A stretch of DNA of 64,000 nt from NCBI RefSeq assembly GCF_034627025.1, contig NZ_CP141050.1, forward strand, positions 1,067,472-1,131,471. Reading direction: 5' to 3'. Below, piece by piece: positions 53,666-64,000 of this stretch. The notes below the pieces were generated by a model. That model ran no database searches. It was not told the origin of the DNA and saw nothing but the letters and a program-made list of their open reading frames with translations. Every line of letters starts with the position of its first letter. The first letter of the stretch is position 1. This DNA is from Microvirga lotononidis (GTDB lineage Bacteria > Pseudomonadota > Alphaproteobacteria > Rhizobiales > Beijerinckiaceae). Both the position numbers and the translations under genes were made by a program.

Positions 53666-54070
53666 GTGTCAGTTTCTATGTCTGCGCCTATGTCTGATGA
53701 TAGAAGTTTCCATGTCCTGGAAGCCATCCCCAGCCGCCTGGAGGTGAGTCCCGATCGGCCCCGCCGGCGCTGGTCGGTTGAAGCCAAAATGGCCCTCATT
53801 GAGGAGACTCTTAAGCCTGGGGCCAATGTGTCGGCCATTGCGCGGCAGGCCGGGATTGCGCCAGCACAACTGTTCGGCTGGCGCCGCAAGGCGATGCAGG
53901 CAGGTGCCGTCCAAGGCGAGCCCCATGAGCAGCGGCTTGGATTCGTTGAAGTCACGCCGACATCCGCCTCGATGATCGAGATCGTTGTCGCTGACGTGGT
54001 GGTTCGCGTTGGGGCTGATGTTGATCAGAACCACCTGGTCAACATCCTCCGGGCGGTCCGACAAGCATGA
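53666..54070 (+). CDS. tnpA: IS66 TnpA (OrfA)
   Basis: The product has 134 residues. RRRWSVEAKMALIEETLKPG and ANVSAIARQAGIAPAQLFGW, RRKA form the HTH_8 DNA-binding region of IS66 accessory protein A. The C-terminal part (MIEIVVADVVVRVGADVDQN) is the usual end. The stop overlaps the tnpB start by four bases (ATGA), so translation is coupled. Needed for transposition of IS66 elements; its precise role is unknown. Confidence 0.93.
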   Translation: MSVSMSAPMSDDRSFHVLEAIPSRLEVSPDRPRRRWSVEAKMALIEETLKPGANVSAIARQAGIAPAQLFGWRRKAMQAGAVQGEPHEQRLGFVEVTPTSASMIEIVVADVVVRVGADVDQNHLVNILRAVRQA

Positions 54071-54411
54071 TCCCGGCCGGCGTGAAGGTGTTCCTGGCCA
54101 GCCATCCGGTTGATTTTAGGAAAGGTCCGGACGGCTTGCTGGCGCTGGTGCGCGAGGCCGGATCCGATCCCTTCAGCGGCGCGCTTTACGTCTTCCGGGC
54201 CAAACGGGCGGATCGTGTCAAAATCGTCTGGTGGGACGGCACCGGCGTGGTCCTGTACAGCAAGCGCTTGGAGAAGGCGCACTTCTGCTGGCCGCGGATC
54301 GGTCAGCATCGGGTGCAGCTCAATCATGCTCAGCTGCTCGCTCTGGTCGATGGCATGGACTGGAAGCGGGTGCACGCCGTGAGCGTCAGGGCTCCGCAAT
54401 CGGTCGGATAG
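54067..54411 (+). CDS. tnpB: IS66 TnpB (Orf2)
   Basis: The 114-residue product matches the whole IS66 Orf2 family: VKVFLASHPVDFRKGPDGLL, GALYVFRAKRADRVKIVWWD, GTGVVLYSKRLEKAHFCWP. Full length. It is found only in IS66-type elements, next to the transposase. Confidence 0.95.
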   Translation: MIPAGVKVFLASHPVDFRKGPDGLLALVREAGSDPFSGALYVFRAKRADRVKIVWWDGTGVVLYSKRLEKAHFCWPRIGQHRVQLNHAQLLALVDGMDWKRVHAVSVRAPQSVG

Positions 54412-54477
54412 TTCTCCCTGCGGCATGATGAATCAGAGCCGGAGAGCCGCTTCGGCAGGTGGTCCCGCCATGCTCTG

Positions 54478-56061
54478 ATGGACGCGATGACGGCCCATGA
54501 TTCCACCCTTCCCGATGATGTCGACGCGCTCAAGGCGATGGTGCGGGCGATGGCCGAGAAGACCGCGCGTCTGGAACAGCGCAATGCTCATCTCGAGCAG
54601 GTGAACCAAGGCGCCGAGGAGCGGATCGCGCGGCTGATGGAGATCGTCAAGATGCTCGAGCGGGCCCGCTACGGCACCCGATCCGAGCGGCTCGGCAAGG
54701 CTCGGCTGACGGACGATCAGTATGCCCTCGCGCTCGATGAGATCGAGACCGGTGTGGCGGCCCTCGAGGTCGAGAGGGACGAGATCCTGGGACGCTCGTC
54801 AACCAAGCGGCCACCGCGCCCGCGCAAAGGCTTTGCAGCGCATCTGGAACGGGTTGAGGTGGTGATCGAGCCGGATGATCCTGCGGGCTGCGAAGGGCTG
54901 GAGCGGATCCGGATCGGCGAGGACGTCTGCGAGCGGCTGGACGTGACGCCGGCGCAGTTCCGGGTGATCGTCACGCGCCGGCCCAAGTATGTCTACAAGG
55001 GCCGCGACGGCGTCATTCAGGCTCCGGCGCCGGCCCGGATCATCGCCAGCGGCATTCCCACCGAGGCGCTGCTGGCCCAGATCGCGGTGTCGAAGTACGC
55101 CGATGGCCTGCCGCTGTACCGCCAGGAAGCGATCTACGCCCGCGACCAGGTTCTCATCGAGCGTTCGCAGATGGCGCAGTGGATGGGCAAGGTCGGGTTT
55201 GAGCTCGAGCCCCTGGCCGCGTATGCCCTGGCGCGGATCAAGCAGGGCGAGCGGATCTTTGCCGATGAGACCACCCTGCCGACCGGGATGGGCAAGGCCA
55301 AGACAGCATACTTGTGGGCCTATGTGCGCGATGATCGGCCGTTTGGCGGCCGCGATCCGCCGATCGTCGTCTACCGCTTTGAGGACAGTCGGGCCGGTGA
55401 GTGCGTGGTCCATCACCTGGAGGGCTATCGCGGCATTCTGCAGGTGGATGGTTACACGGCCTATCATCGCCTTGCCCGGCCGAAGGGAGCCAATGAAGGC
55501 GTGCAGCTGGCCGCCTGCTGGTCGCACGTGCGCAGGAAATTCTACGAGCTGCACGTGTCGACTGCCTCCAATGTGGCCGCGCAGACGCTGGAGCAGATGG
55601 CTTCGCTCTGGGCTCTGGAGGAGAGGGTTCGCGGCAAGGATGTGGGAACAAGAAGGCAGGCCCGCCAGGCGGAATCGGCTGCTGTCGTGAGCGGACTCTT
55701 CGCGCTGTGGGAACAGGAACTGCCAAAGCTGTCGCGCAAATCGAAGATGGCCGAGGCGATCCGGTATGCGCTCACGCGCCGTGCCTCTTTAGAGCGGTTC
55801 TTGTCGGACGGACGCGTCGAGTTGGATTCCAACACGGTTGAACGCGCGATCCGGCCTCAGACAATCACACGCAAGAACTCGCTCTTCGCCGGCTCCGATG
55901 GCGGCGGTCGCACATGGGCTGCTATTGCCAGCCTTCTGGCCACGGCCAAAATGAACAACGTCGATCCACACGCCTGGCTGACGCAAACGCTTGAGCGCAT
56001 CGCCAACGGGTGGCCCAACCGCGAGATCGATGCTCTCATGCCGTGGAACTATCGCCCCTGA
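54478..56061 (+). CDS. tnpC: IS66 transposase TnpC
   Basis: The product has 527 residues. An N-terminal coiled coil (MVRAMAEKTARLEQRNAHLE) and KMLERARYGTRSERL are followed by the catalytic part: RIFADETTLPTGM (Asp), ILQVDGYTAYHRL (Asp), and ERAIRPQTITRKNSLFAGSD, (Glu within V-E-R-AIRP), then GGRTWAAIASLLATAKMNN. The three motifs and the length are complete, so it should be active. Confidence 0.95.
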   Translation: MDAMTAHDSTLPDDVDALKAMVRAMAEKTARLEQRNAHLEQVNQGAEERIARLMEIVKMLERARYGTRSERLGKARLTDDQYALALDEIETGVAALEVERDEILGRSSTKRPPRPRKGFAAHLERVEVVIEPDDPAGCEGLERIRIGEDVCERLDVTPAQFRVIVTRRPKYVYKGRDGVIQAPAPARIIASGIPTEALLAQIAVSKYADGLPLYRQEAIYARDQVLIERSQMAQWMGKVGFELEPLAAYALARIKQGERIFADETTLPTGMGKAKTAYLWAYVRDDRPFGGRDPPIVVYRFEDSRAGECVVHHLEGYRGILQVDGYTAYHRLARPKGANEGVQLAACWSHVRRKFYELHVSTASNVAAQTLEQMASLWALEERVRGKDVGTRRQARQAESAAVVSGLFALWEQELPKLSRKSKMAEAIRYALTRRASLERFLSDGRVELDSNTVERAIRPQTITRKNSLFAGSDGGGRTWAAIASLLATAKMNNVDPHAWLTQTLERIANGWPNREIDALMPWNYRP

Positions 56062-56091
56062 ACGGCATCAGCTACGCGCTTACCTGGGGAT

Positions 56092-56696
56092 CCTTTTGCC
56101 TGCCAATCTGCCCCGCTTACCAGCCCCGTCACTAGCTTCGCAACATCTAAGCTATTGTATAAGAAAGAGTCTACTTCAATAACCGTAGTGTCCAGCGACT
56201 TGGCTACAGCTTGCCGTGCGGAGCGAGAGCCGCTTGAAAACTGGCATTCCAGGCTGTTTAGGCCCTAAATCGGCCGATCTGCGCCAATCTTGGCCGCTTC
56301 TGACCGCCCCGCAGAGCAAATTCCCCGCAACTGGCTAAGAAAGTACGACTACAGCAGCCCTCAAAAAGCAGTCTGGCGGCGACATCAACCGTTCGTTTAA
56401 TCCGCGTTCTTAACCTGTACAAAGCCCGTGGGGCTGGATGCCATTTTTGCCTTTAAAGCTCGTTGCAACAGCCGCGTCCCCGCTGATGTCATGGCACTCG
56501 CCTGCCGTCATGAGGCGACATGCGATGACGGCACTCTCGTTCAAAGCATACCAGGGACTGCCCATTCTCAAAGATGTGCCCCTCTTCTCCCCCTTCACAG
56601 TGTCTTGCCCAGCTTAAAGCAGCCCACGGACGTAATGATTATACTGTTGGACAGCATGTGGAGGATAGTGAGCAAAGCCCCCTACCCTCCACTTGG
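56092..56696. other. intergenic stretch downstream of repB, no repC
   Basis: About 600 bases where a RepABC operon would carry its counter-transcribed RNA and the start of repC. A leftward 62-codon frame at 56410-56598 does not look like RepC. No other gene is visible. The block is relatively AT-rich. The IS66 insertion lies immediately beyond. Confidence 0.5.
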
Positions 56697-57791
56697 TCAA
56701 TCGCCTTCCTTCTTGGGTGCTTCATACTCGCGACACAGTTCTTCAAGCTTCTGAACCAGGAAGTCAGAGAATCCAGGATCGTCGCGGCGGTCGATCTGGA
56801 TCGTGCAACGGGCATCCGTCGTGCTGATGCTGGCTCGCCGGCGTCCAAACGAGTCATTGAGATAGGTCTGCACGGGAGCAACTTTCGTGGTGCTCGCAGT
56901 CGCCTCCTTCTTCATGACCTGATCATAAAGGGCCACGAACCGATCATCAGACTGAAGGGCTCGGAACTCGTCGGTCTTTACGAAAGCCAGTGCCTTCTTG
57001 ATTTTATCCTTTTCCTTAAAGATGGTCAGAAGGTCATTCCACCGAGGGCGGCCAATACTAGGAGCCTTACCGATCGCGTAGATCACATCGCGCGGGATGC
57101 GATTAGCAATGCTGATCATGGTTGAGAGGTTGTTCTCAGTGATCGTCAGAGCAGCGCTGATGATTGATCGAGCATAGCCTTGCTGTTCAAGCTCCGAAGC
57201 GAATCGCGCTTTTTCGATGAAGCTTAGATCGAGTCGTGCATTATTTTCTTGACCCTGCGCAATTACGAGCTCTGCGTCGGTCAGCTTCTTGACGACTGCG
57301 CGGACGTTCATCCCGAGTTTTGCAACGGCGCGAAGACGGCGGTGACCGAATGCGACTTGGTAGCGTCCCTCCTTTTCGGGATGGGGGCGCACCAGGATCG
57401 GGACGAGCTGACCTTGCTCATGAATCTGCTGGGCGAGCTCTTCGATCTCAGCGTCGCTGATCTCCATGCGGTCGGAGATGAACGAAGGATCGATCTCATC
57501 TGGGCTAAGCTCGATAATTGTCTCGCCAGCCTCAAGTTTTGACTTTAGAGCCTCCACCTCAGGGCCTGCGTTTTCAAGCCTGCGTTCGATAACCTCTCGC
57601 ATTGCCCCGATTGGGTTGTTCGGGTTAGGGGGAGTCCTCATCGTTGCACTAATGCTTCGGAGCCATGAGCCCTCGGTGGCGGATGCCTGAGGAGGGGTAG
57701 CCGGCCGTTCGGTCCCGCCGACAACCCCGAGTGGTGCAAGAGAATCGTCCATATCTGGATCAAGGAAAGACTTTCTGTCGCGCTTACCCAT
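56697..57791 (-). CDS. repB: plasmid partitioning protein RepB (ParB family)
   Basis: The product has 364 residues. ISDAEIEELAQQIHEQGQLV, PILVRPHPEKEGRYQVAFGH, RRLRAVAKLG is the ParB nuclease-like box with GHRRLRA. ENNARLDLSFIEKARFASEL and ITENNLSTMISIANRIP hold the HTH that binds parS. The C-terminus has the RepB extension (FSDFLVQKLEELCREYEAPK). The start ATG overlaps the repA stop (TAATG) behind GGGGGAGGG. It loads onto the parS-like array upstream of repA and partners RepA in segregation. Confidence 0.93.
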   Translation of the reverse strand: MGKRDRKSFLDPDMDDSLAPLGVVGGTERPATPPQASATEGSWLRSISATMRTPPNPNNPIGAMREVIERRLENAGPEVEALKSKLEAGETIIELSPDEIDPSFISDRMEISDAEIEELAQQIHEQGQLVPILVRPHPEKEGRYQVAFGHRRLRAVAKLGMNVRAVVKKLTDAELVIAQGQENNARLDLSFIEKARFASELEQQGYARSIISAALTITENNLSTMISIANRIPRDVIYAIGKAPSIGRPRWNDLLTIFKEKDKIKKALAFVKTDEFRALQSDDRFVALYDQVMKKEATASTTKVAPVQTYLNDSFGRRRASISTTDARCTIQIDRRDDPGFSDFLVQKLEELCREYEAPKKEGD

Positions 57792-59005
57792 TACACCCTC
57801 CCCCATGCGGCTTTGATAAGTTCTTCGATTTCAGCATTGACGCTGTTTAACGACTCCATGGCCCGGTCGTAGGTACCTTTCGAGAAGTCCTCACGAGGGA
57901 CCTCATAGAGCGTTTGCTTAGTTATCCCTGCATCCGAGATCGCGGTGCTCTTGAGCACTGCGTTGGTCAGAACATACTCTTTGAACATGCCCCGCATGAA
58001 ATCGACCATGTCTGCTTGTGGCTTGTCGCTCGGCTCGAAGCGCGTAATAAGGTAGCGAATCCAGTCGTAACGAACCTTGCCACCTGCATCCTGCACAACG
58101 TCTAACATTGAGGATGTCATTTTAAGGAACTGGCACATCGACATGACGTCCAGCATTTGCGGATGCACGGTGACCACCAGCGCGGTAGAGGCGCTGAGAG
58201 CCGACATGGTGAGGAAGCCGAGTTGAGGTGGGCAGTCGATCAGAACGATGTCGTACTGATCACTTACAGCAGAGAGAGCCAGCCCAACACGTTCGAAGAA
58301 CATGACCGACGCGTCCCGGTTATGGCTCCGGAGGTGCATTGGCGTTTCGGTCTCGAATTCGGTCAACTCGAGGTTGGCTGGAATGAGGTCCAAATTCGGG
58401 AAGTAAGTCTTCTGGATCACATCTTTGGGATGGCAGGCGTCGGCTGAATACCGGATGGCTCCGTAGAGGGTTTGGTGGTCCCCGACGTCTAGTTCAGGCT
58501 GAAGCCCGTGGATAGCCGTGAGGCTAGCTTGTGGGTCCAGATCTACGGCGAGCACGCGATATCCGTTAAGGGCAAGATACTGTGCCAGGTGGGCTGTGGT
58601 AGTCGTCTTGGCGCTGCCACCTTTGAAGTTGACACAACTGATGACCTGCAGGTGTTCGCCCTCACCACGATGCTTAACGTAGTGACGGCGGGCCTTATCG
58701 GCGCTATCCAGGTGAAAGCGCAGAGCATTGATGTCTTCGACCGAGTACAGCCTGCGACCATTCGGGAGGACTTCGACCTGAGGCCCCTTCCCCTCCAACG
58801 CCAACTGCCTCAGGTAGCTATCCGCAATACCGATCATCTTCGCGACTTCGCCTGAGGTGAACTTGCGAAGCCGCTTTTGGATGCCAGGATGATTCTGCTT
58901 CACACGCTGTGCATGAAGCTTTGCGGATAGATCGCTTGAGTGCTTTCGGATGACTTCTTGGTCAACGAAAGACGCCAAGTCGATTCTTGGTTGGGCCAGA
59001 GACAC
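57791..59005 (-). CDS. repA: plasmid partitioning ATPase RepA (ParA family)
   Basis: The product has 404 residues. The N-terminal HTH reads FTSGEVAKMIGIADSYLRQL, followed by the Walker-type ATPase ISCVNFKGGSAKTTTTAHLA (deviant Walker A) and VLAVDLDPQASLTAIHGLQP. DIVLIDCPPQLGFLTMSAL and VVTVHPQMLDVMSMCQFLKM complete the ParA signature. RepA moves plasmids apart and represses the operon through its HTH. Full length for the RepABC type. The parS-like array lies directly upstream. Confidence 0.95.
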   Translation of the reverse strand: MSLAQPRIDLASFVDQEVIRKHSSDLSAKLHAQRVKQNHPGIQKRLRKFTSGEVAKMIGIADSYLRQLALEGKGPQVEVLPNGRRLYSVEDINALRFHLDSADKARRHYVKHRGEGEHLQVISCVNFKGGSAKTTTTAHLAQYLALNGYRVLAVDLDPQASLTAIHGLQPELDVGDHQTLYGAIRYSADACHPKDVIQKTYFPNLDLIPANLELTEFETETPMHLRSHNRDASVMFFERVGLALSAVSDQYDIVLIDCPPQLGFLTMSALSASTALVVTVHPQMLDVMSMCQFLKMTSSMLDVVQDAGGKVRYDWIRYLITRFEPSDKPQADMVDFMRGMFKEYVLTNAVLKSTAISDAGITKQTLYEVPREDFSKGTYDRAMESLNSVNAEIEELIKAAWGRV

Positions 59006-59156
59006 TTTGGCTCTCCTTCAGACGGAAACCCGGGGCTAAAAGCACCCTCTTCCGTTACTAAAAGGTCGAAATTCTATACAAATCGTTAATGAGACCCTCT
59101 TTTGAGACGTTTCGAGCCGATTTTGTCAGTGATGCTGGCATCTGCCTCCACCCGGA

Positions 59157-60357
59157 GTTCTCAGCTGAGAAGATTGGGAGCGAGTGGGCTGGTCGGGATT
59201 AATCCGGAACCAAGGCACTTCTCAGCTGAGAAGTCTTCGCTCCTTTGAGCGATCTCACGGACTCATCGACTGTGAGCGACTCATTTTTATCGGAAACGGC
59301 ACCGAGGCCCAAATTTGTAACTTCTCATCTGAGAACTTTTGCATCCACTGACCACCCCGGAGCGGGCGACACACTTTGCTGCCGGAGAATCCAATCGGGC
59401 GGTCCCAGATCGTATCTAAACCTGCGCGGCAGTTCTCAGCTGAGAACTCTTGTTTTCAGGTCCAAGGCACTACACGTGTCTCAGTCGCGCCGCCTACCGG
59501 TGGCCATGTCTTCTCAGCTGAGACTTCAGAAAGGCTTTGAATGCGAGCCGATCCGTTCCCCGGTTCTCCAGTTGGTAGGAAGATTAAGGTGAGGAGTATA
59601 GGACCGATCCGGGAGTTCTCAGCTCAGAACTCGATGTGAAGAAGACACCAAGGAAGGGCCCCACCCCGCTCAAACACGGCGGAGTACGAACTGAAGGTAT
59701 GGTTCTAGCAGGGTTATTCGCCAATCCCGGGACCGCAGTACTTCTCAGCTGAGAGCGTTGATATCGACGACCTGTTCTGACCTTGCCTTGAGGTAGCATC
59801 TTGGCCCGGTAGGGCTACTGGCCGGTCTGTTGGGTTGATCTCTGAAGCAGAGAGGCCCTTTACCATAGGACCCGGAGTCCTGGGCCCCCGACTGGCATCC
59901 AGGTTGCTAAACGAGGCGGCTGACAGAGTTTGCCGCTAAAGTTGCAAATGGCCTTGCGGTCTTCTCAGCTGAGAACTTGTTGCTGTGGCTATGCATGTTG
60001 GCTGAGAGGTATCGTGAAAAAAGGCATCCGACTGCAGAAAACTTGTTCGCTCATATGATGCCTTAACTTAACACGGATCGGTACCAGACAACTCAATACT
60101 CCCGAGCCTGTTTCGGTATAAGCTCCTCAGCTGCGACCATGTCAGCCAGTTGCTCTTAACAACTCGCTGTGTACCCGGCGTACGATTGGTCGAGGCGCGA
60201 AAACGCTCATTTAGGCCTTGGAAGTTCTCAGCTGAGAACTTCGAGAGTATCCATTAGGAGCCACTTTTACTCGAATAGGCGGACTCTTCGAAGCACAGCC
60301 GGTTGTCGAAATGGGTTCGACACCTCGGCTCTAGGCAGAAACTTCTCAGCTGAGAAG
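59157..60357. repeat. parS-like centromere array, ten 16-bp palindromes
   Basis: Core GTTCTCAGCTGAGAAC fits the RepABC parS consensus GTTNNCNGCNGNNAAC. Copies start at 59157, 59218, 59321, 59432 (perfect), 59510, 59615, 59741, 59961, 60224 (perfect) and 60342. The others differ by one to three bases, mostly at the outer positions. A degenerate copy (12 of 16) lies near 60123. Spacing is irregular, 61-263 bp. The array fills the otherwise gene-free 1.4 kb between repA and the next gene. RepB binding is inferred from the consensus. Confidence 0.9.
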
Positions 60358-60455
60358 AGGCTCCCAGCAGACGAGGATGGCGCGGCATTTCCTGACGACC
60401 TAGTATGTTATACTTCGCGTAGCTTAGGGAGTCAGCCGGCGATAGGGGAAGAGCT

Positions 60456-60743
60456 ATGGGGCAGGGGAGCGTCGTGGATGATAGGCGTGGCACCCCATTC
60501 GAGCTCTCGGGTTCCGAGCTGGCTGCTTTGTGCCGATCTCGACCATCAAGGCATGCGGTTTCCGAGGAAACACATTCTGAGAGCCTGTTCCTGGGTTTGT
60601 TGGCGAAATGCGTGAGCCGCCCCAAACTGCAAGTTATGGTTAACGAGCTTTTTGATGCCGAGCTGGCTCGCATGACCATGAGAAGTGCGTGCGTTCCGAT
60701 TCCAGCTCACAGAGACTACCTAAAGGAGCGAGCGGAGCTCTAG
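60456..60743 (+). CDS. small hypothetical protein
   Basis: The 95-residue product begins MGQGSVVDDRRGTPFELSGS, with SLFLGLLAKCVSRPKLQVMV and LFDAELARMTMRSACVPIPA. An AGGGGAAGAG site precedes the ATG, and a possible -10 (TATGTTATACT) lies near 60403. It is helical, with a basic middle. It borders the parS array, so a role in plasmid maintenance is possible but unproven. Confidence 0.55.
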   Translation: MGQGSVVDDRRGTPFELSGSELAALCRSRPSRHAVSEETHSESLFLGLLAKCVSRPKLQVMVNELFDAELARMTMRSACVPIPAHRDYLKERAEL

Positions 60744-60885
60744 AACCTAGTCGAGGAGAACAGGCAGGGGCTTGAGAGCACTCTGCCCCCTCGACAGCTG
60801 CCTTTCCGTCCTGTCGACAACGCCCTCTGAGGATAGGCCGTTACACCTTCGGCTCCGCTCGTAAACCAGGTTCCCTGGAGAAGCG

Positions 60886-61809
60886 CTATGCTGCGTCCTC
60901 CGGGGAAGTCGGCAGAATCAGCCCGGCCCTTCGCGCTTGATCGAGTTGTTGCTTGACGGAAGAGGCGTTCCATTTTGTCCCGCCTCGTGGGTTTCGCTCG
61001 CGCATGCGTTCGAGTTGCACAGCAATATCCCGCAGCGACAGACCCGGATCGGCCATGGCAATGCCAGCGATCAGCGTCATGAGCCGGTCCGCAGAGGGGC
61101 GGGGAGGGGACTTCTGAAGCAACGCCGGATCGGCCATGCGCTGCGAGACCAGTTTTCGAACGGCACGCCGAAGGCGCTCCGCCGTCCAATCTTGGCCCCA
61201 TCCATTCAGAACCTGAACGACGTCGGACCACGGCTGGCCCGGCCGCATGCGCTTCACCGTGGGCATCCAGCGATCGGCCGAGGCAATGAGTGGGTCGAGA
61301 TACCGCTTCTCTCGGGCAAGTGTCAGTCGGCGGACAGTTTCCGGGCGGTGTTCGCGAACCCCGGGGCTGCCGAGAACCTTCCCGCGGGCTTTGGCGGCCC
61401 GTAGTCCGGCCTTGGTGCGCTCGGAGATCAGCGATCGCTCGAGCTGCGCCACCGCACCGAGCACTTGCAGCGAGAACATGCCCTGGGGTGTCGATGTATC
61501 GATCGGATCCTGGAGAGATTTGAAATGCGCGCCCTTCTTCTCGAGCCCCTCAATGACCTCGAGCAGATGGCTCACCGAACGCGCCAGCCGGTCGAGGCGC
61601 ACGACGACGAGCACGTCACCAGCCCGGATCTCCTTGAGCAGTTGAGCAAGAACCGGACGGGCCCGGGAACCCCCGGAGCCCTGCTCCTGATGGATTAGCC
61701 CGCAGCCGGCCGCCTCGAGCTCGATGAGCTGGGCGTCCGTCATCTGGTCGTCGGTCGACACGCGGGCATAGCCGATCAGGCGCCGTTTCGGGGCAGGGGA
61801 GGGGGCCAT
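60886..61809 (-). CDS. serine recombinase (resolvase/invertase family)
   Basis: The product has 307 residues. LIGYARVSTDDQMTDAQLIE has the nucleophile Ser18; VVVRLDRLARSVSHLLEVIE and GGSRARPVLAQLL complete the catalytic domain, and the E-helix SLISERTKAGLRAAKARGK follows. The C-terminus is about 120 residues longer than that of classical Tn3 resolvases and holds two more HTH-like parts, so it is a medium-size invertase-type enzyme. It may resolve plasmid multimers, consistent with its place beside the partition locus. Confidence 0.9.
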   Translation of the reverse strand: MAPSPAPKRRLIGYARVSTDDQMTDAQLIELEAAGCGLIHQEQGSGGSRARPVLAQLLKEIRAGDVLVVVRLDRLARSVSHLLEVIEGLEKKGAHFKSLQDPIDTSTPQGMFSLQVLGAVAQLERSLISERTKAGLRAAKARGKVLGSPGVREHRPETVRRLTLAREKRYLDPLIASADRWMPTVKRMRPGQPWSDVVQVLNGWGQDWTAERLRRAVRKLVSQRMADPALLQKSPPRPSADRLMTLIAGIAMADPGLSLRDIAVQLERMRERNPRGGTKWNASSVKQQLDQARRAGLILPTSPEDAA

Positions 61810-61870
61810 CAGGGGGCACTCATCTCGGTTCGGTTCTCGGGCTTACGATCGAGAGGATGACGTGCGAAGC

Positions 61871-62302
61871 TTATACGGCTGACAACAAGTTGGCGGTCGA
61901 CCACGAGGGCCAGCCGGTCCCCGCGAAATCACGATCGTGGCTCCACAGGTCGGCATCCAAGGTCCAGGCCAAAGCCAGCAAGTGGGCATCGGTGACGCTG
62001 CCGTTACGGGACGCCGGCCCGTTGCTGAGCGCCGTTGCAGCCGCTGTCCTATCCTCGTCGGCGACGTCCTCACGGGCGATAATGGTGACGAGCTCAAGCA
62101 GGCTTTCCAGAACGGCGAGATCGCTGGGCCTGACATGCCCGATGACCCGATAGGCCTCATCAAAGGCTTCTTCGCTGGTGAGCAGGCTCCGCCGTCCTGA
62201 GATCAGGTCCAGGTGTGCACCGGTCATTGACCCCAGGACCGCGGCTACAAGGATATTGGCGTCGACCACCAAGGCGGCTGGAACGCCGCGCGGTCGGCTC
62301 AA
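61871..62302 (-). CDS. PIN-domain toxin (VapC-like)
   Basis: The product has 143 residues. ALVVDANILVAAVLGS gives the first Asp; TSEEAFDEAYRVIGH the conserved Glu; SVTDAHLLALAWTLDADLWS, HDRDFA the later acids. PIN toxins of this kind are Mg-dependent RNases. It overlaps its antitoxin gene by four bases (ATGA). The window places the pair between the recombinase and IS256, a usual plasmid-addiction position. Confidence 0.85.
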   Translation of the reverse strand: MSRPRGVPAALVVDANILVAAVLGSMTGAHLDLISGRRSLLTSEEAFDEAYRVIGHVRPSDLAVLESLLELVTIIAREDVADEDRTAAATALSNGPASRNGSVTDAHLLALAWTLDADLWSHDRDFAGTGWPSWSTANLLSAV

Positions 62303-62529
62303 GGACCGAACTCGCGGTCAAGGGCAGCCTGCTCCTCGGGAGAGCGTTGGGAGTGTGCCTGTGCCAGCGCCTGACGAAACCGTGCCCGGGCCGCTTCGGA
62401 CGCGGGACGCAGCGGGACGAGCAGAGCAACGGTTCGCCCATCGCTCTGCACAGGGACAGCACCTGGCAGCCGCTCGATCGAAGCCGCCGACAATTTCTGG
62501 AGTTCTCTCATTGTTATCACATGTGCCAT
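62299..62529 (-). CDS. antitoxin of PIN-toxin pair
   Basis: The 76-residue product begins MAHVITMRELQKLSAASIER, LPGAVPVQSDGRTVALLVPL, which is the Phd/AbrB-like DNA-binding strand pattern of prevent-host-death antitoxins. The C-terminal helix (RFRQALAQAHSQRSPEEQAA) would bind the toxin. It is translated first and overlaps the toxin start. Confidence 0.8.
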   Translation of the reverse strand: MAHVITMRELQKLSAASIERLPGAVPVQSDGRTVALLVPLRPASEAARARFRQALAQAHSQRSPEEQAALDREFGP

Positions 62530-62706
62530 GCAATGTATGTAAACACGTAGGGCGGCGTTTTCAAGCGACGTGAAGCCGATTTGTACAATTTCACAAGGCG
62601 CGTACTAACGATCGTTTGAAGACGTCTTTCAAGTCATTTTGTTAACCGGCGGGGGAGGGGAGGGCTTCCCTGCAGCCGGCGAAAATGCTTTGAAAACGAG
62701 GGCATT

Positions 62707-63993
62707 AGGATTGTGTGCGTCAAGTTCTGCAAAGCGGGCGGCCGACAGGCTGGCTAAGCGGCTTGGCGGAGTTGATCCTTTTTGTGCTCCTTCAGATCGT
62801 CCATGTTGAGGTAGCGGTGAGCTTCGAGCCAGTTCTCGTGCATCTCCACCGCTAGCGCCCGCACCAGCCGGCAGCATGAGGCGGCATTGGGGAAGATCCG
62901 CACCACGTAGGTGCGTCGGCGGATCTCCTCGTTCAGGCGCTCGAGCATGTTGGTGCTCTTGAGATGCTTATGGTGCTGGCGCGGCAGCCGGTAGAACGTG
63001 AACGTCTCCTCGATTGTTTCCTCGGCCCAGGCGATCAGGCGCGGGTAGCGCGCCTCCCACTTGGCGATCCAGGCGGAGAGATCCCGCCGCGCCTCCTCGA
63101 CCGAACGCCGGTCGTAGAGCCAGCGCAGCTCCTGCAGGCAGTCGTCATCGGCCTTGCGCGGCAGGTGATCGAGCGCGTTGCGGAGGAAGTGCACATAGCA
63201 GCGCTGGTAGGCGGCCTCACTCAGCACTTCGCGGATCGCCGCTCTCAGCCCGGCATGATCATCGGCCACCACCAGCTCGACCCCGGACAGCCCGCGCTCG
63301 CGCAGGCCCAGCAGAAACGTGCGCCAGGAGGACTGGCTTTCCCGGTTGGCCATCTCGACGCCCAGGATCTGGCGCCGGCCATCCCAGTCGATGCCCACCG
63401 CAATCAGCACCGCCTGCGAGCGGACGATGCCGCCCTCGCGCACCTTCTCGTAACGGGCATCCAGGATCAGGTATGGGAACGGCTCCTCGAGCCGGCGGGA
63501 GGCGAACTGGGCCAGGCTGTCGTCGAGCCGCTTGTTGATCGAGGAGATGGCGGAAGCCGAGAAGCTGTGGCCGCACAGCTCCTCGGTGATGGCCTTGACC
63601 TTGCGGGTAGAGACCCCCTGCACGTACATCTCGGCCAGGGTGGCGACCAGCGCCTGCTCGGAGCGCTGATAGCGCTCGAACAGCTCGGTCGAGAAGCGCC
63701 CGTCCCGGTCCTGCGGCACCCGCAGCTCGAGTTTGCCCACGCGGGTCACCAGGGTGCGGGTGTAATAGCCCGAGCGGTAGCCGAGGCGGGAGGCGGTGCG
63801 CTCGCCCTTCTCGGCCTGGAGCGCATCGGTCATCTCGGCTTCGAGCATCTCCTGCATGACGGCCCGCACGATCTCGCGCAGCCCGTCCGGGTTCTGGCTC
63901 AGAAGGTCCTTGATGGCGGCCGCGGCAGGTTTATCCTTGGAGTTGGTCATGGTGGGGCTCCTCTCGGAGGGTGACGTTGAACATCACCATCCT
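62707..63993 (-). mobile_element. IS256 family insertion sequence, right end near window edge
   Basis: Imperfect terminal repeats AGGATTGTGTGCGTCAAGTTC (left) and AGGATGGTGATGTTCAACGT (right, inverted) match at about 14 of 21 positions and bracket the transposase gene. Only seven bases of flank remain on the right, so a target duplication cannot be checked. Confidence 0.75.
62754..63950 (-). CDS. IS256 family transposase
   Basis: The product has 398 residues: ILDARYEKVREGGIVRSQAV (first Asp), VVADDHAGLRAAIREVLSEA, YQRCYVHFLRNALDHLPR (second Asp with C-x2-H) and STNMLERLNEEIRRRTYVVR (final Glu). This is the mutator-type IS256 DDE pattern and full length for the family. The transposase looks intact. 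Confidence 0.93.
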   Translation of the reverse strand: MTNSKDKPAAAAIKDLLSQNPDGLREIVRAVMQEMLEAEMTDALQAEKGERTASRLGYRSGYYTRTLVTRVGKLELRVPQDRDGRFSTELFERYQRSEQALVATLAEMYVQGVSTRKVKAITEELCGHSFSASAISSINKRLDDSLAQFASRRLEEPFPYLILDARYEKVREGGIVRSQAVLIAVGIDWDGRRQILGVEMANRESQSSWRTFLLGLRERGLSGVELVVADDHAGLRAAIREVLSEAAYQRCYVHFLRNALDHLPRKADDDCLQELRWLYDRRSVEEARRDLSAWIAKWEARYPRLIAWAEETIEETFTFYRLPRQHHKHLKSTNMLERLNEEIRRRTYVVRIFPNAASCCRLVRALAVEMHENWLEAHRYLNMDDLKEHKKDQLRQAA

Positions 63994-64000
63994 GCCATGA

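What the first reader, a model, noticed from the sequence alone, without database searches (positions are those of the whole stretch)
59157..60357. Ten-copy parS-like centromere array upstream of repA
Ten 16-bp palindromes fitting GTTNNCNGCNGNNAAC occupy 1.2 kb of otherwise gene-free DNA beside repA. RepABC plasmids usually carry one to a few parS sites; an irregularly spaced ten-copy array would be a large centromere, with possible effects on copy number, incompatibility and RepA-RepB dosage. Most copies have C or G at the outer positions, suggesting two flavours of site.
Basis: partly seen in the sequence, partly recalled or inferred. Interest (0 to 1): 0.75.

Follow-up and report, generated by a model that had tools for sequence, protein, structure and literature searches.

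The report
Ten-site plasmid centromere beside repAB
A large soil-bacterium plasmid carries ten copies of a DNA address that its segregation protein probably grips to pull the copies apart; it is the biggest such cluster in our survey, and it marks the centre of the plasmid's layout although the known replication-starter gene lies nearly half a plasmid away.

Summary
The array is real: ten copies of a 14-bp palindrome, TTCTCAGCTGAGAA (at most 1 mismatch), in 1.2 kb of AT-rich, apparently gene-free DNA upstream of repA, and no other such copy in the 7.3-Mb genome.

It is best read as a RepB-bound parS centromere of a 1.13-Mb Microvirga megaplasmid. The nearest RepB relative (M. subterranea, 71% identical) has the same palindrome seven times, with diverged spacers. 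Over 113 RepB proteins, palindrome identity closely tracks RepB clade.

Upstream multi-parS arrays are usual at Microvirga repAB loci without linked repC. Ten is the top of that range and the most among 174 loci surveyed.

Two points go beyond the finding. This is not a repABC operon: the only RepC match on the replicon lies 517 kb away. And FtsK-orienting motifs (KOPS) switch strand, pointing away, at the RepAB-parS locus in 43 of 43 informative unlinked loci, but at only 1 of 10 informative standalone RepC genes. So the array marks the replicon's origin pole although the gene that usually bears the origin is elsewhere. Where replication starts is open and testable. RepB binding is inferred.

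The parts
59157..59172 (.). parS site 1, nearest repA (GTTCTCAGCTGAGAAG)
59218..59233 (.). parS site 2 (CTTCTCAGCTGAGAAG)
59321..59336 (.). parS site 3 (CTTCTCATCTGAGAAC, 1 core mismatch)
59432..59447 (.). parS site 4 (GTTCTCAGCTGAGAAC, fits the published consensus exactly)
59510..59525 (.). parS site 5 (CTTCTCAGCTGAGACT, 1 core mismatch)
59615..59630 (.). parS site 6 (GTTCTCAGCTCAGAAC, 1 core mismatch)
59741..59756 (.). parS site 7 (CTTCTCAGCTGAGAGC, 1 core mismatch)
59961..59976 (.). parS site 8 (CTTCTCAGCTGAGAAC)
60124..60137 (.). degenerate eleventh copy (TCCTCAGCTGCGAC, 3 core mismatches); function doubtful
60224..60239 (.). parS site 9 (GTTCTCAGCTGAGAAC, fits the published consensus exactly)
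60342..60357 (.). parS site 10, farthest from repA (CTTCTCAGCTGAGAAG)
57791..59005 (-). repA (ParA-type ATPase, 404 aa)
   Evidence: TIGR03453 E=1e-184, above its cut-off; AAA_31, CbiA
56697..57806 (-). repB (ParB-type DNA-binding protein, 369 aa), overlaps repA by 16 bp as called from its first ATG; presumed ligand of the array
   Evidence: TIGR03454 E=2.8e-102, above its cut-off; ParB_N and RepB; ParB/Noc homology
59009..59090 (-). leader of repA, the main stretch outside the palindromes that aligns with M. subterranea (77% over 82 bp); presumed promoter/operator
   Evidence: similarity; function inferred

Best explanation
The array is the centromere (parS cluster) of a 1.13-Mb Microvirga megaplasmid. 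RepB dimers, the product of the adjacent repAB genes, bind each 14-16-bp palindrome, load and spread to form one large partition complex, and RepA (ParA ATPase) pulls sister complexes apart. The site nearest repA, about 150 bp before its start codon, probably also lets RepB help RepA repress the repAB promoter. The partition module is uncoupled from repC, yet it marks the origin pole of the replicon: KOPS motifs point away from it on both sides. Shown here: the sites, their uniqueness, their co-inheritance with RepB, the absence of linked repC, and the KOPS divergence. Inferred: RepB binding, spreading, the segregation function, autoregulation, and why there are ten sites.
For: Ten copies in 1.2 kb, none in 100 shuffles; no other copy with at most 1 mismatch in the genome. 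RepA and RepB exceed the NCBIfam equivalog cut-offs. Exact palindrome in 2 of 48 genus genomes, in both only beside this RepAB type; M. subterranea has 7 copies, while the DNA between aligns little beyond the sites and an 82-bp leader. On a tree of 113 RepB, 36 palindromes need 39 changes (200 label shuffles: mean 92.6, minimum 87); for loci with at least 3 sites, 27 palindromes in 76 rows need 28 changes (mean 61.6, minimum 57). The three other RepAB loci of this genome have different palindromes. KOPS (GGGNAGGG) is on the minus strand up to C3 1,126,256 and on the plus strand from 1,127,930, enclosing the array. In 47 unlinked genus loci 430 motifs point away from the array's far edge and 36 toward it, with a strand switch pointing away in 43 of 43 loci informative on both sides (4 not informative). 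GGGCAGGG and GGGTAGGG are polar, their reversals GGGACGGG and GGGATGGG are not. Published parS of repABC replicons share this palindrome type, and in pAMI4 each is bound by RepB in vitro (PMC9040568).
Against: No binding or stability data for this RepB. In published tests on small plasmids extra parS sites lowered stability (PMC9040568, on pSymA and pAMI4), so ten sites may not simply mean better partition. Four of ten cores carry a mismatch. Site number does not correlate significantly with replicon size in 18 loci of five genomes (Spearman 0.20, p = 0.42). C3 GC skew supports an origin near the array only weakly (permutation p = 0.08). The same core also occurs twice beside a RepB of another genus that is not its nearest relative (L316), so palindromes can recur.
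Confidence: 0.9

Rival explanations
1. The array is mainly a RepA/RepB operator that sets repAB dosage (autorepression) rather than a centromere.
For: Upstream parS sites in Rhizobiales were proposed to regulate operon transcription (PMC9040568, passages). The nearest site is about 150 bp from the repA start, and the main conserved non-palindromic stretch is the repA leader.
Against: Sites reach 1.35 kb upstream, far beyond an operator; the KOPS divergence at the locus points to replicon-scale organisation. The two roles are not exclusive.
Confidence: 0.06
2. The palindromes are binding sites of a replication initiator (iterons), so the array is the replication origin rather than the centromere.
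For: KOPS diverges here and C3 GC skew has its fitted origin nearby (p = 0.08); the region is the AT-rich extreme of the window; no repC adjoins it.
Against: Palindromes at irregular spacings of 61-263 bp, unlike regular direct iterons (recalled); palindrome identity tracks RepB; sites of the same type accompany repAB whether or not repC is linked; no RPA-type initiator in the genome. An origin elsewhere in or beside the array is not excluded.
Confidence: 0.03
3. The repeats belong to a mobile element, such as target sites of the neighbouring serine recombinase, or are a dispersed repeat family.
For: A resolvase gene (60886-61809) and a Mutator/IS256-type transposase gene lie just beyond the array.
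Against: No dispersed copies with at most 1 mismatch in 7.3 Mb; the same palindrome sits upstream of repA in M. subterranea, and arrays of the same type accompany most RepAB loci of the genus.
Confidence: 0.01

Closest known systems
Upstream parS clusters of large Rhizobiales repABC replicons (S. meliloti pSymA with six; A. tumefaciens and R. rhizogenes K84 chromosome 2)
   Same: Palindromes of the same family, multiplied upstream of repA, no site at the repA/repB junction, large replicon (PMC9040568, sections read)
   Different: Ten sites rather than pSymA's six; repC is not in the operon; the core is TTCTCAGCTGAGAA
3parS locus of Paracoccus aminophilus pAMI4
   Same: Several parS in a long non-coding AT-rich stretch, shown there to be bound by RepB and needed for stability (PMC9040568)
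   Different: 3parS lies 11.5 kb downstream of repC in a replicon with a canonical repABC operon; here the array adjoins repA
repAB array of Microvirga subterranea (L039, same locus as L237)
   Same: Same palindrome, same position, RepB 71% identical, no repC match in the 10 kb beyond repB
   Different: Seven copies, diverged spacers
KOPS organisation of chromosomes and large extrachromosomal replicons (PMC13342612, PMC12153318; passages read)
   Same: GGGNAGGG polarised from the origin toward the terminus
   Different: In canonical repABC replicons origin and centromere adjoin; here the array sits at the divergence point while the RepC match is 517 kb away

Membership tests
RepABC-type (alphaproteobacterial) RepA-RepB-parS partition system | RepA above the TIGR03453 equivalog cut-off | tested here: met
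   613.8 bits against 348.45
RepABC-type (alphaproteobacterial) RepA-RepB-parS partition system | RepB above the TIGR03454 equivalog cut-off | tested here: met
   342.4 bits against 201.5; ParB_N and RepB Pfam domains
RepABC-type (alphaproteobacterial) RepA-RepB-parS partition system | Palindromic sites near repAB, unique to the locus and co-inherited with RepB | tested here: met
RepABC-type (alphaproteobacterial) RepA-RepB-parS partition system | parS matches the published consensus GTTNNCNGCNGNNAAC | tested here: inconclusive
   2 of 10 match exactly; the others depart at the outer bases and/or by one core mismatch
RepABC-type (alphaproteobacterial) RepA-RepB-parS partition system | RepB binds the sites | not testable with these tools
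   needs gel shift or ChIP
repABC operon / repABC replicon in the strict sense | repC downstream of repB in the same operon | tested here: not met
   no RepC match next to this repAB; the only PF03428 match on C3 is at 609,191-609,691
Multi-parS cluster upstream of repA | several copies upstream of repA and none at the repA/repB junction | tested here: met
   10 upstream, 0 at the junction

The most novel reading that the evidence does not exclude
In Microvirga megaplasmids the centromere and the replication origin have come apart. RepC, with the origin that usually lies inside its gene, initiates replication tens to hundreds of kilobases away, while the RepAB-parS array alone defines the pole from which KOPS polarity, and presumably segregation and replicon folding, radiates. 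Replicon polarity would then follow the centromere rather than the origin. The rival within the same data is that RepC acts in trans on an unrecognised origin at the array.
Probability: 0.25. Interest if true: 0.75.

Novelty: new variant of a known kind. Interest (0 to 1): 0.5.

Why it matters
In canonical repABC replicons the centromere, partition genes and replication origin sit within a few kilobases, so their roles in organising a replicon are hard to tell apart by position. Microvirga replicons separate repAB-parS from repC naturally, in many replicons. The array shows how large a parS cluster can become, and the KOPS data suggest that replicon polarity is anchored at the RepAB-parS locus. 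One marker-frequency experiment would say whether polarity follows the centromere or the origin.

Tried and rejected
Published consensus as the search pattern: finds only 2 of 10 sites, so later scans used the core.

Dispersed-repeat and transposon readings: rejected by uniqueness in the genome and by the conserved array in M. subterranea.

RPA-type initiator (PF10134): none in the genome. Of seven ORFs tested in the first 10 kb of C3, two matched Pfam (DnaJ; UPF0182), none an initiator. Other initiator families were not searched.

Rfam in 54000-64000: no match at gathering thresholds. DNA similarity of the array region to plasmids: only short matches with E of 0.4 or more, in 15 records.

'Two flavours of site': rejected.

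'Loss of linked repC goes with loss of the junction parS': among genus loci with at least 2 sites and 1 kb upstream, the junction site is present in 16 of 23 linked, 0 of 46 unlinked and 0 of 11 undecided loci. But the phylogenetic test is not significant (5 independent pairs on supported branches, median p = 1), and in other genera of the family 5 of 9 loci scored as unlinked keep a junction site. I do not claim it as general. RepC was sought with seven RepC proteins of this genome at E 1e-6, so divergent linked RepC may be missed.

RepB columns that separate palindrome groups: residues 226 and 229, in the region that I take to be the helix-turn-helix (recalled from ParB work), rank 1st and 5th, but N-terminal variable columns rank as high; weak, no tree correction.

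GANTC sites in the array: 5 against 2.2 expected, p = 0.07; not claimed.

Reversed KOPS as a control: GGGANGGG is also polar, because GGGAAGGG belongs to both patterns and GGGAGGGG is polar too. GGGACGGG, GGGATGGG and GGGNTGGG are not polar. So the polarity is of G/A-rich octamers that include KOPS, not of KOPS alone. Part of the plus-strand excess may be coding bias of rep genes; with repA and repB left out it remains.

Fixing the KOPS switch exactly to the parS sites: fitted switch intervals overlap the upstream parS span in only 47 of 79 loci, so the switch is placed at the RepAB-parS locus, within a few kilobases, not at the sites themselves.

A first tally at standalone RepC genes leaned toward divergence: 42 motifs against 25, and 8 of 13 stretches with more divergent than convergent motifs, 2 the reverse, 3 ties. 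I judged that it counts unequal motif numbers on the two sides as divergence, so I repeated it as a strand-switch test for both kinds of locus, which is the comparison used in the summary.

The best C3 origin from sampled KOPS under equal arms was 190 kb (p = 0.045), against 0 kb for GC skew (p = 0.08); C2 gave no significant fit by either (p = 0.98 for GC skew; 0.19 for KOPS). I rely on the local switch instead.

Full report
WHERE IT IS. The window is bases 1,067,472-1,131,471 of contig C3 (1,131,471 bp) of a four-contig genome of 7,316,924 bp; C1 is 4.97 Mb, C2 1.18 Mb, C4 40.9 kb. The genus is Microvirga by inference: same-genus genomes have repA at the coordinates of named M. ossetica, M. 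terrae and Microvirga sp. VF16 plasmids, and the nearest RepB is from M. subterranea.

THE OBSERVATION. The region 59157-60357 holds ten copies of a palindrome with start-to-start spacings of 61, 103, 111, 78, 105, 126, 220, 263 and 118 bp. The core TTCTCAGCTGAGAA is exact in six and has one mismatch in four; 100 shuffles of the window gave none. In the whole genome all ten places with at most one mismatch are in this array; 14 places with two mismatches lie elsewhere. A further degenerate copy with three mismatches is at 60124. The outer base is G or C on each half-site independently, so 'two flavours' is not supported. Longer repeat families in the region all share the palindrome or are two-copy matches, so I do not read the array as a duplicated longer unit.

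THE GENES. repA (57791-59005, minus) and repB (56697-57806, minus) are above the equivalog cut-offs for the RepABC-type partition proteins. RepB resembles ParB, Noc and Spo0J of solved structure. An IS66 transposase gene (54478-56061, plus) lies beyond repB. No repC was found next to repB. The only RP-C (PF03428) match on C3 is at 609,191-609,691, 517 kb from the array. C4 has repA, repB and repC together.

OTHER LOCI IN THE SAME GENOME. Each other RepAB has its own palindrome: C2 at 214 kb CTTTGCAGCTGCAAAG-type (4 copies), C2 at 629 kb GTTGTCCGCGGACAAC (5), C4 GTTGTCATCTGACAAC-type (2). Co-resident partition systems therefore have different sites, as expected if each RepB reads its own (inference).

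COMPARATIVE EVIDENCE. RepA was found above its cut-off in 36 of 48 genus genomes, 85 loci in all. All 85 were examined, with 40 loci from other genera of the family (a chosen part's list) and 50 more distant loci, which are those of the 80 that are not Microvirga. One of these 175 (L324, a clipped stretch) was dropped for lack of a RepA or RepB match, leaving 174. Best palindrome family per locus: 10 sites in 1 locus (this one), 8 in 1, 7 in 5, 6 in 3, 5 in 15, 4 in 25, 3 in 41, 2 in 64, none in 19. Shuffled regions gave at most 2, so families of two can be chance. Upstream sites number 2-10 (median 4) in 46 unlinked genus loci and 1-6 (median 2) in 23 linked ones. The exact palindrome of this array occurs in 2 of 48 genus genomes, in each only at the repAB locus; the second is M. 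subterranea, with seven copies 212-922 bp upstream of repA. Between the two, the DNA aligns mainly at the sites and over an 82-bp repA leader, so the palindromes are what is retained. One locus of another genus (L316, repC linked) uses the same core twice. On a RepB tree of 113 rows, palindrome identity changes 39 times for 36 palindromes, against 87 or more with shuffled labels; for loci with at least three sites, 28 changes for 27 palindromes against 57 or more. This is co-inheritance of RepB and site, the best available substitute for a binding test.

REPC IS ELSEWHERE. Of the 85 genus loci, 25 have RepC linked, 47 do not, and 13 are undecided for want of sequence. In G019 and G032 the ten contigs other than C1 each carry one RepAB and at least one RepC: two of the ten have a linked RepC, eight have RepC only elsewhere on the contig. 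repAB genes not closely associated with repC have been noted in print for several Alphaproteobacteria (PMC2783167, passage seen). Searches with Microvirga, repABC, repC and repAB listed 15 of 89 and 12 of 59 papers, none of which holds the word Microvirga; I found nothing in print on this arrangement there, within those lists.

THE ARRAY IS THE ORIGIN POLE. GGGNAGGG is the KOPS motif, oriented from origin toward dif or the terminus (PMC13342612 and PMC12153318, passages). In this genome it is polar: on C1 the plus-strand form GGGCAGGG becomes dense just past the chromosomal ParAB-like genes at 1.73 Mb (14 listed places below 1.712 Mb, 86 from 1.758 to 2.814 Mb; the list is cut there). On C3, sampled at 400 kb, there are 29 plus and 9 minus motifs up to 821 kb, and 1 plus and 18 minus from 873 to 1,121 kb. 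Near the array the last minus-strand motif is at 1,126,256 and the first plus-strand one at 1,127,930; the array is 1,126,628-1,127,828. In the window, the twelve motifs from 37,399 to 58,785 are minus (eleven with overlaps merged) and the six from 60,459 on are plus (four merged). The C2 loci at 214 and 629 kb show the same divergence. Over 47 genus loci without linked repC, 430 motifs point away from the far edge of the array and 36 toward it. With repA and repB left out, counts are (+84, -198) upstream of repA, the plus ones lying mostly inside the arrays, and (+125, -6) beyond repB. Counted from the repA start, 46 of 47 unlinked and 25 of 25 linked genus loci lean the same way; in other genera of the family 26 against 1 (28 linked loci) and 10 against 0 (11 unlinked), and in the distant set 36 against 2 (44 linked loci).

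REPAB AGAINST REPC. As a strand-switch test (majority minus on the left, plus on the right), unlinked genus RepAB loci give a switch pointing away in 43 of 43 informative loci at the far site (4 not informative) and 41 of 44 at the repA start (3 not informative). Of 13 stretches around standalone RepC genes (5 own, 8 from named Microvirga plasmids) 1 of 10 informative ones has such a switch, and 9 keep the same majority strand on both sides; within 6 kb it is 0 of 5. A cruder tally was less clear-cut: 42 divergent to 25 convergent motifs. At the C3 RepC, plus-strand motifs stand on both sides (581, 587, 612, 615, 642 kb).

HOW IT MOST LIKELY WORKS. RepB binds the palindromes and nucleates one partition complex, and RepA separates sister complexes. 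For pAMI4 it was shown that RepB binds each parS, that the 3parS locus exerts incompatibility, and that deleting it lowers stability and disperses RepB foci (PMC9040568; I read the abstract, parts 1-3 of 6 and passages). The same paper reports six sites upstream of repA in pSymA, multiplication of upstream sites without a junction site in the largest Rhizobiales replicons, and that adding sites can destabilise small test plasmids. Why this replicon has ten is unknown; size does not explain it.

WHAT IS OPEN. In canonical repABC replicons the origin lies inside repC (PMC9040568, introduction). If that holds for the C3 RepC, the replication origin is nearly opposite the centromere (if C3 is circular) and KOPS polarity is set by the centromere. 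If instead replication starts at the array, RepC or another initiator acts there. GC skew favours the array weakly (p = 0.08). Marker-frequency sequencing would decide.

JUDGEMENT. The finding is real and correctly read in outline: an extreme member of a known class, multi-parS clusters upstream of repA. The extra interest lies in its uncoupling from repC and its position at the pole of replicon polarity.

Noticed in passing
C2 of the same genome: RepAB at 214-216 kb and 629-632 kb (L030, L031): One 1.18-Mb replicon carries two RepAB-parS loci with different palindromes, each at a KOPS divergence point, and five RepC matches; it looks like a dicentric fusion of two replicons. The ten contigs other than C1 of two relatives (G019, G032) have one RepAB each.
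   Followed up: partly
L033, L035, L036, L037 (C3 609 kb; C2 87, 513 and 718 kb): Standalone RepC genes at C3 609 kb and C2 87 and 718 kb are 81-83% identical; those at C3 609 kb and C2 513 kb have identical profile scores and the same first 50 residues, so two co-resident replicons may share a recently duplicated initiator.
   Followed up: no
C4:3029-4189 (L032): repA of the small repABC plasmid is reported with one TAA inside the match.
   Followed up: no
arrays of unlinked genus loci: KOPS-like motifs are frequent inside the arrays and almost all on one strand (66 plus, 4 minus over 47 kb), so the strand switch often lies at the far edge of the array.
   Followed up: partly
window 60886-63950: Next to the array: a serine resolvase gene, a PIN-domain protein gene (61871-62302, possibly a toxin of a toxin-antitoxin pair) and a Mutator/IS256-type transposase gene, up to the contig end.
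   Followed up: no
window 60456-60743: A 95-aa ORF just beyond the array without Pfam match or relative in the plasmid collection.
   Followed up: no
L226 (161-kb repABC plasmid of a relative): Seven copies of TGGGGAGCTCCCCA-type sites spread through a complete repABC operon, including two at the repA/repB junction and two beyond it.
   Followed up: no
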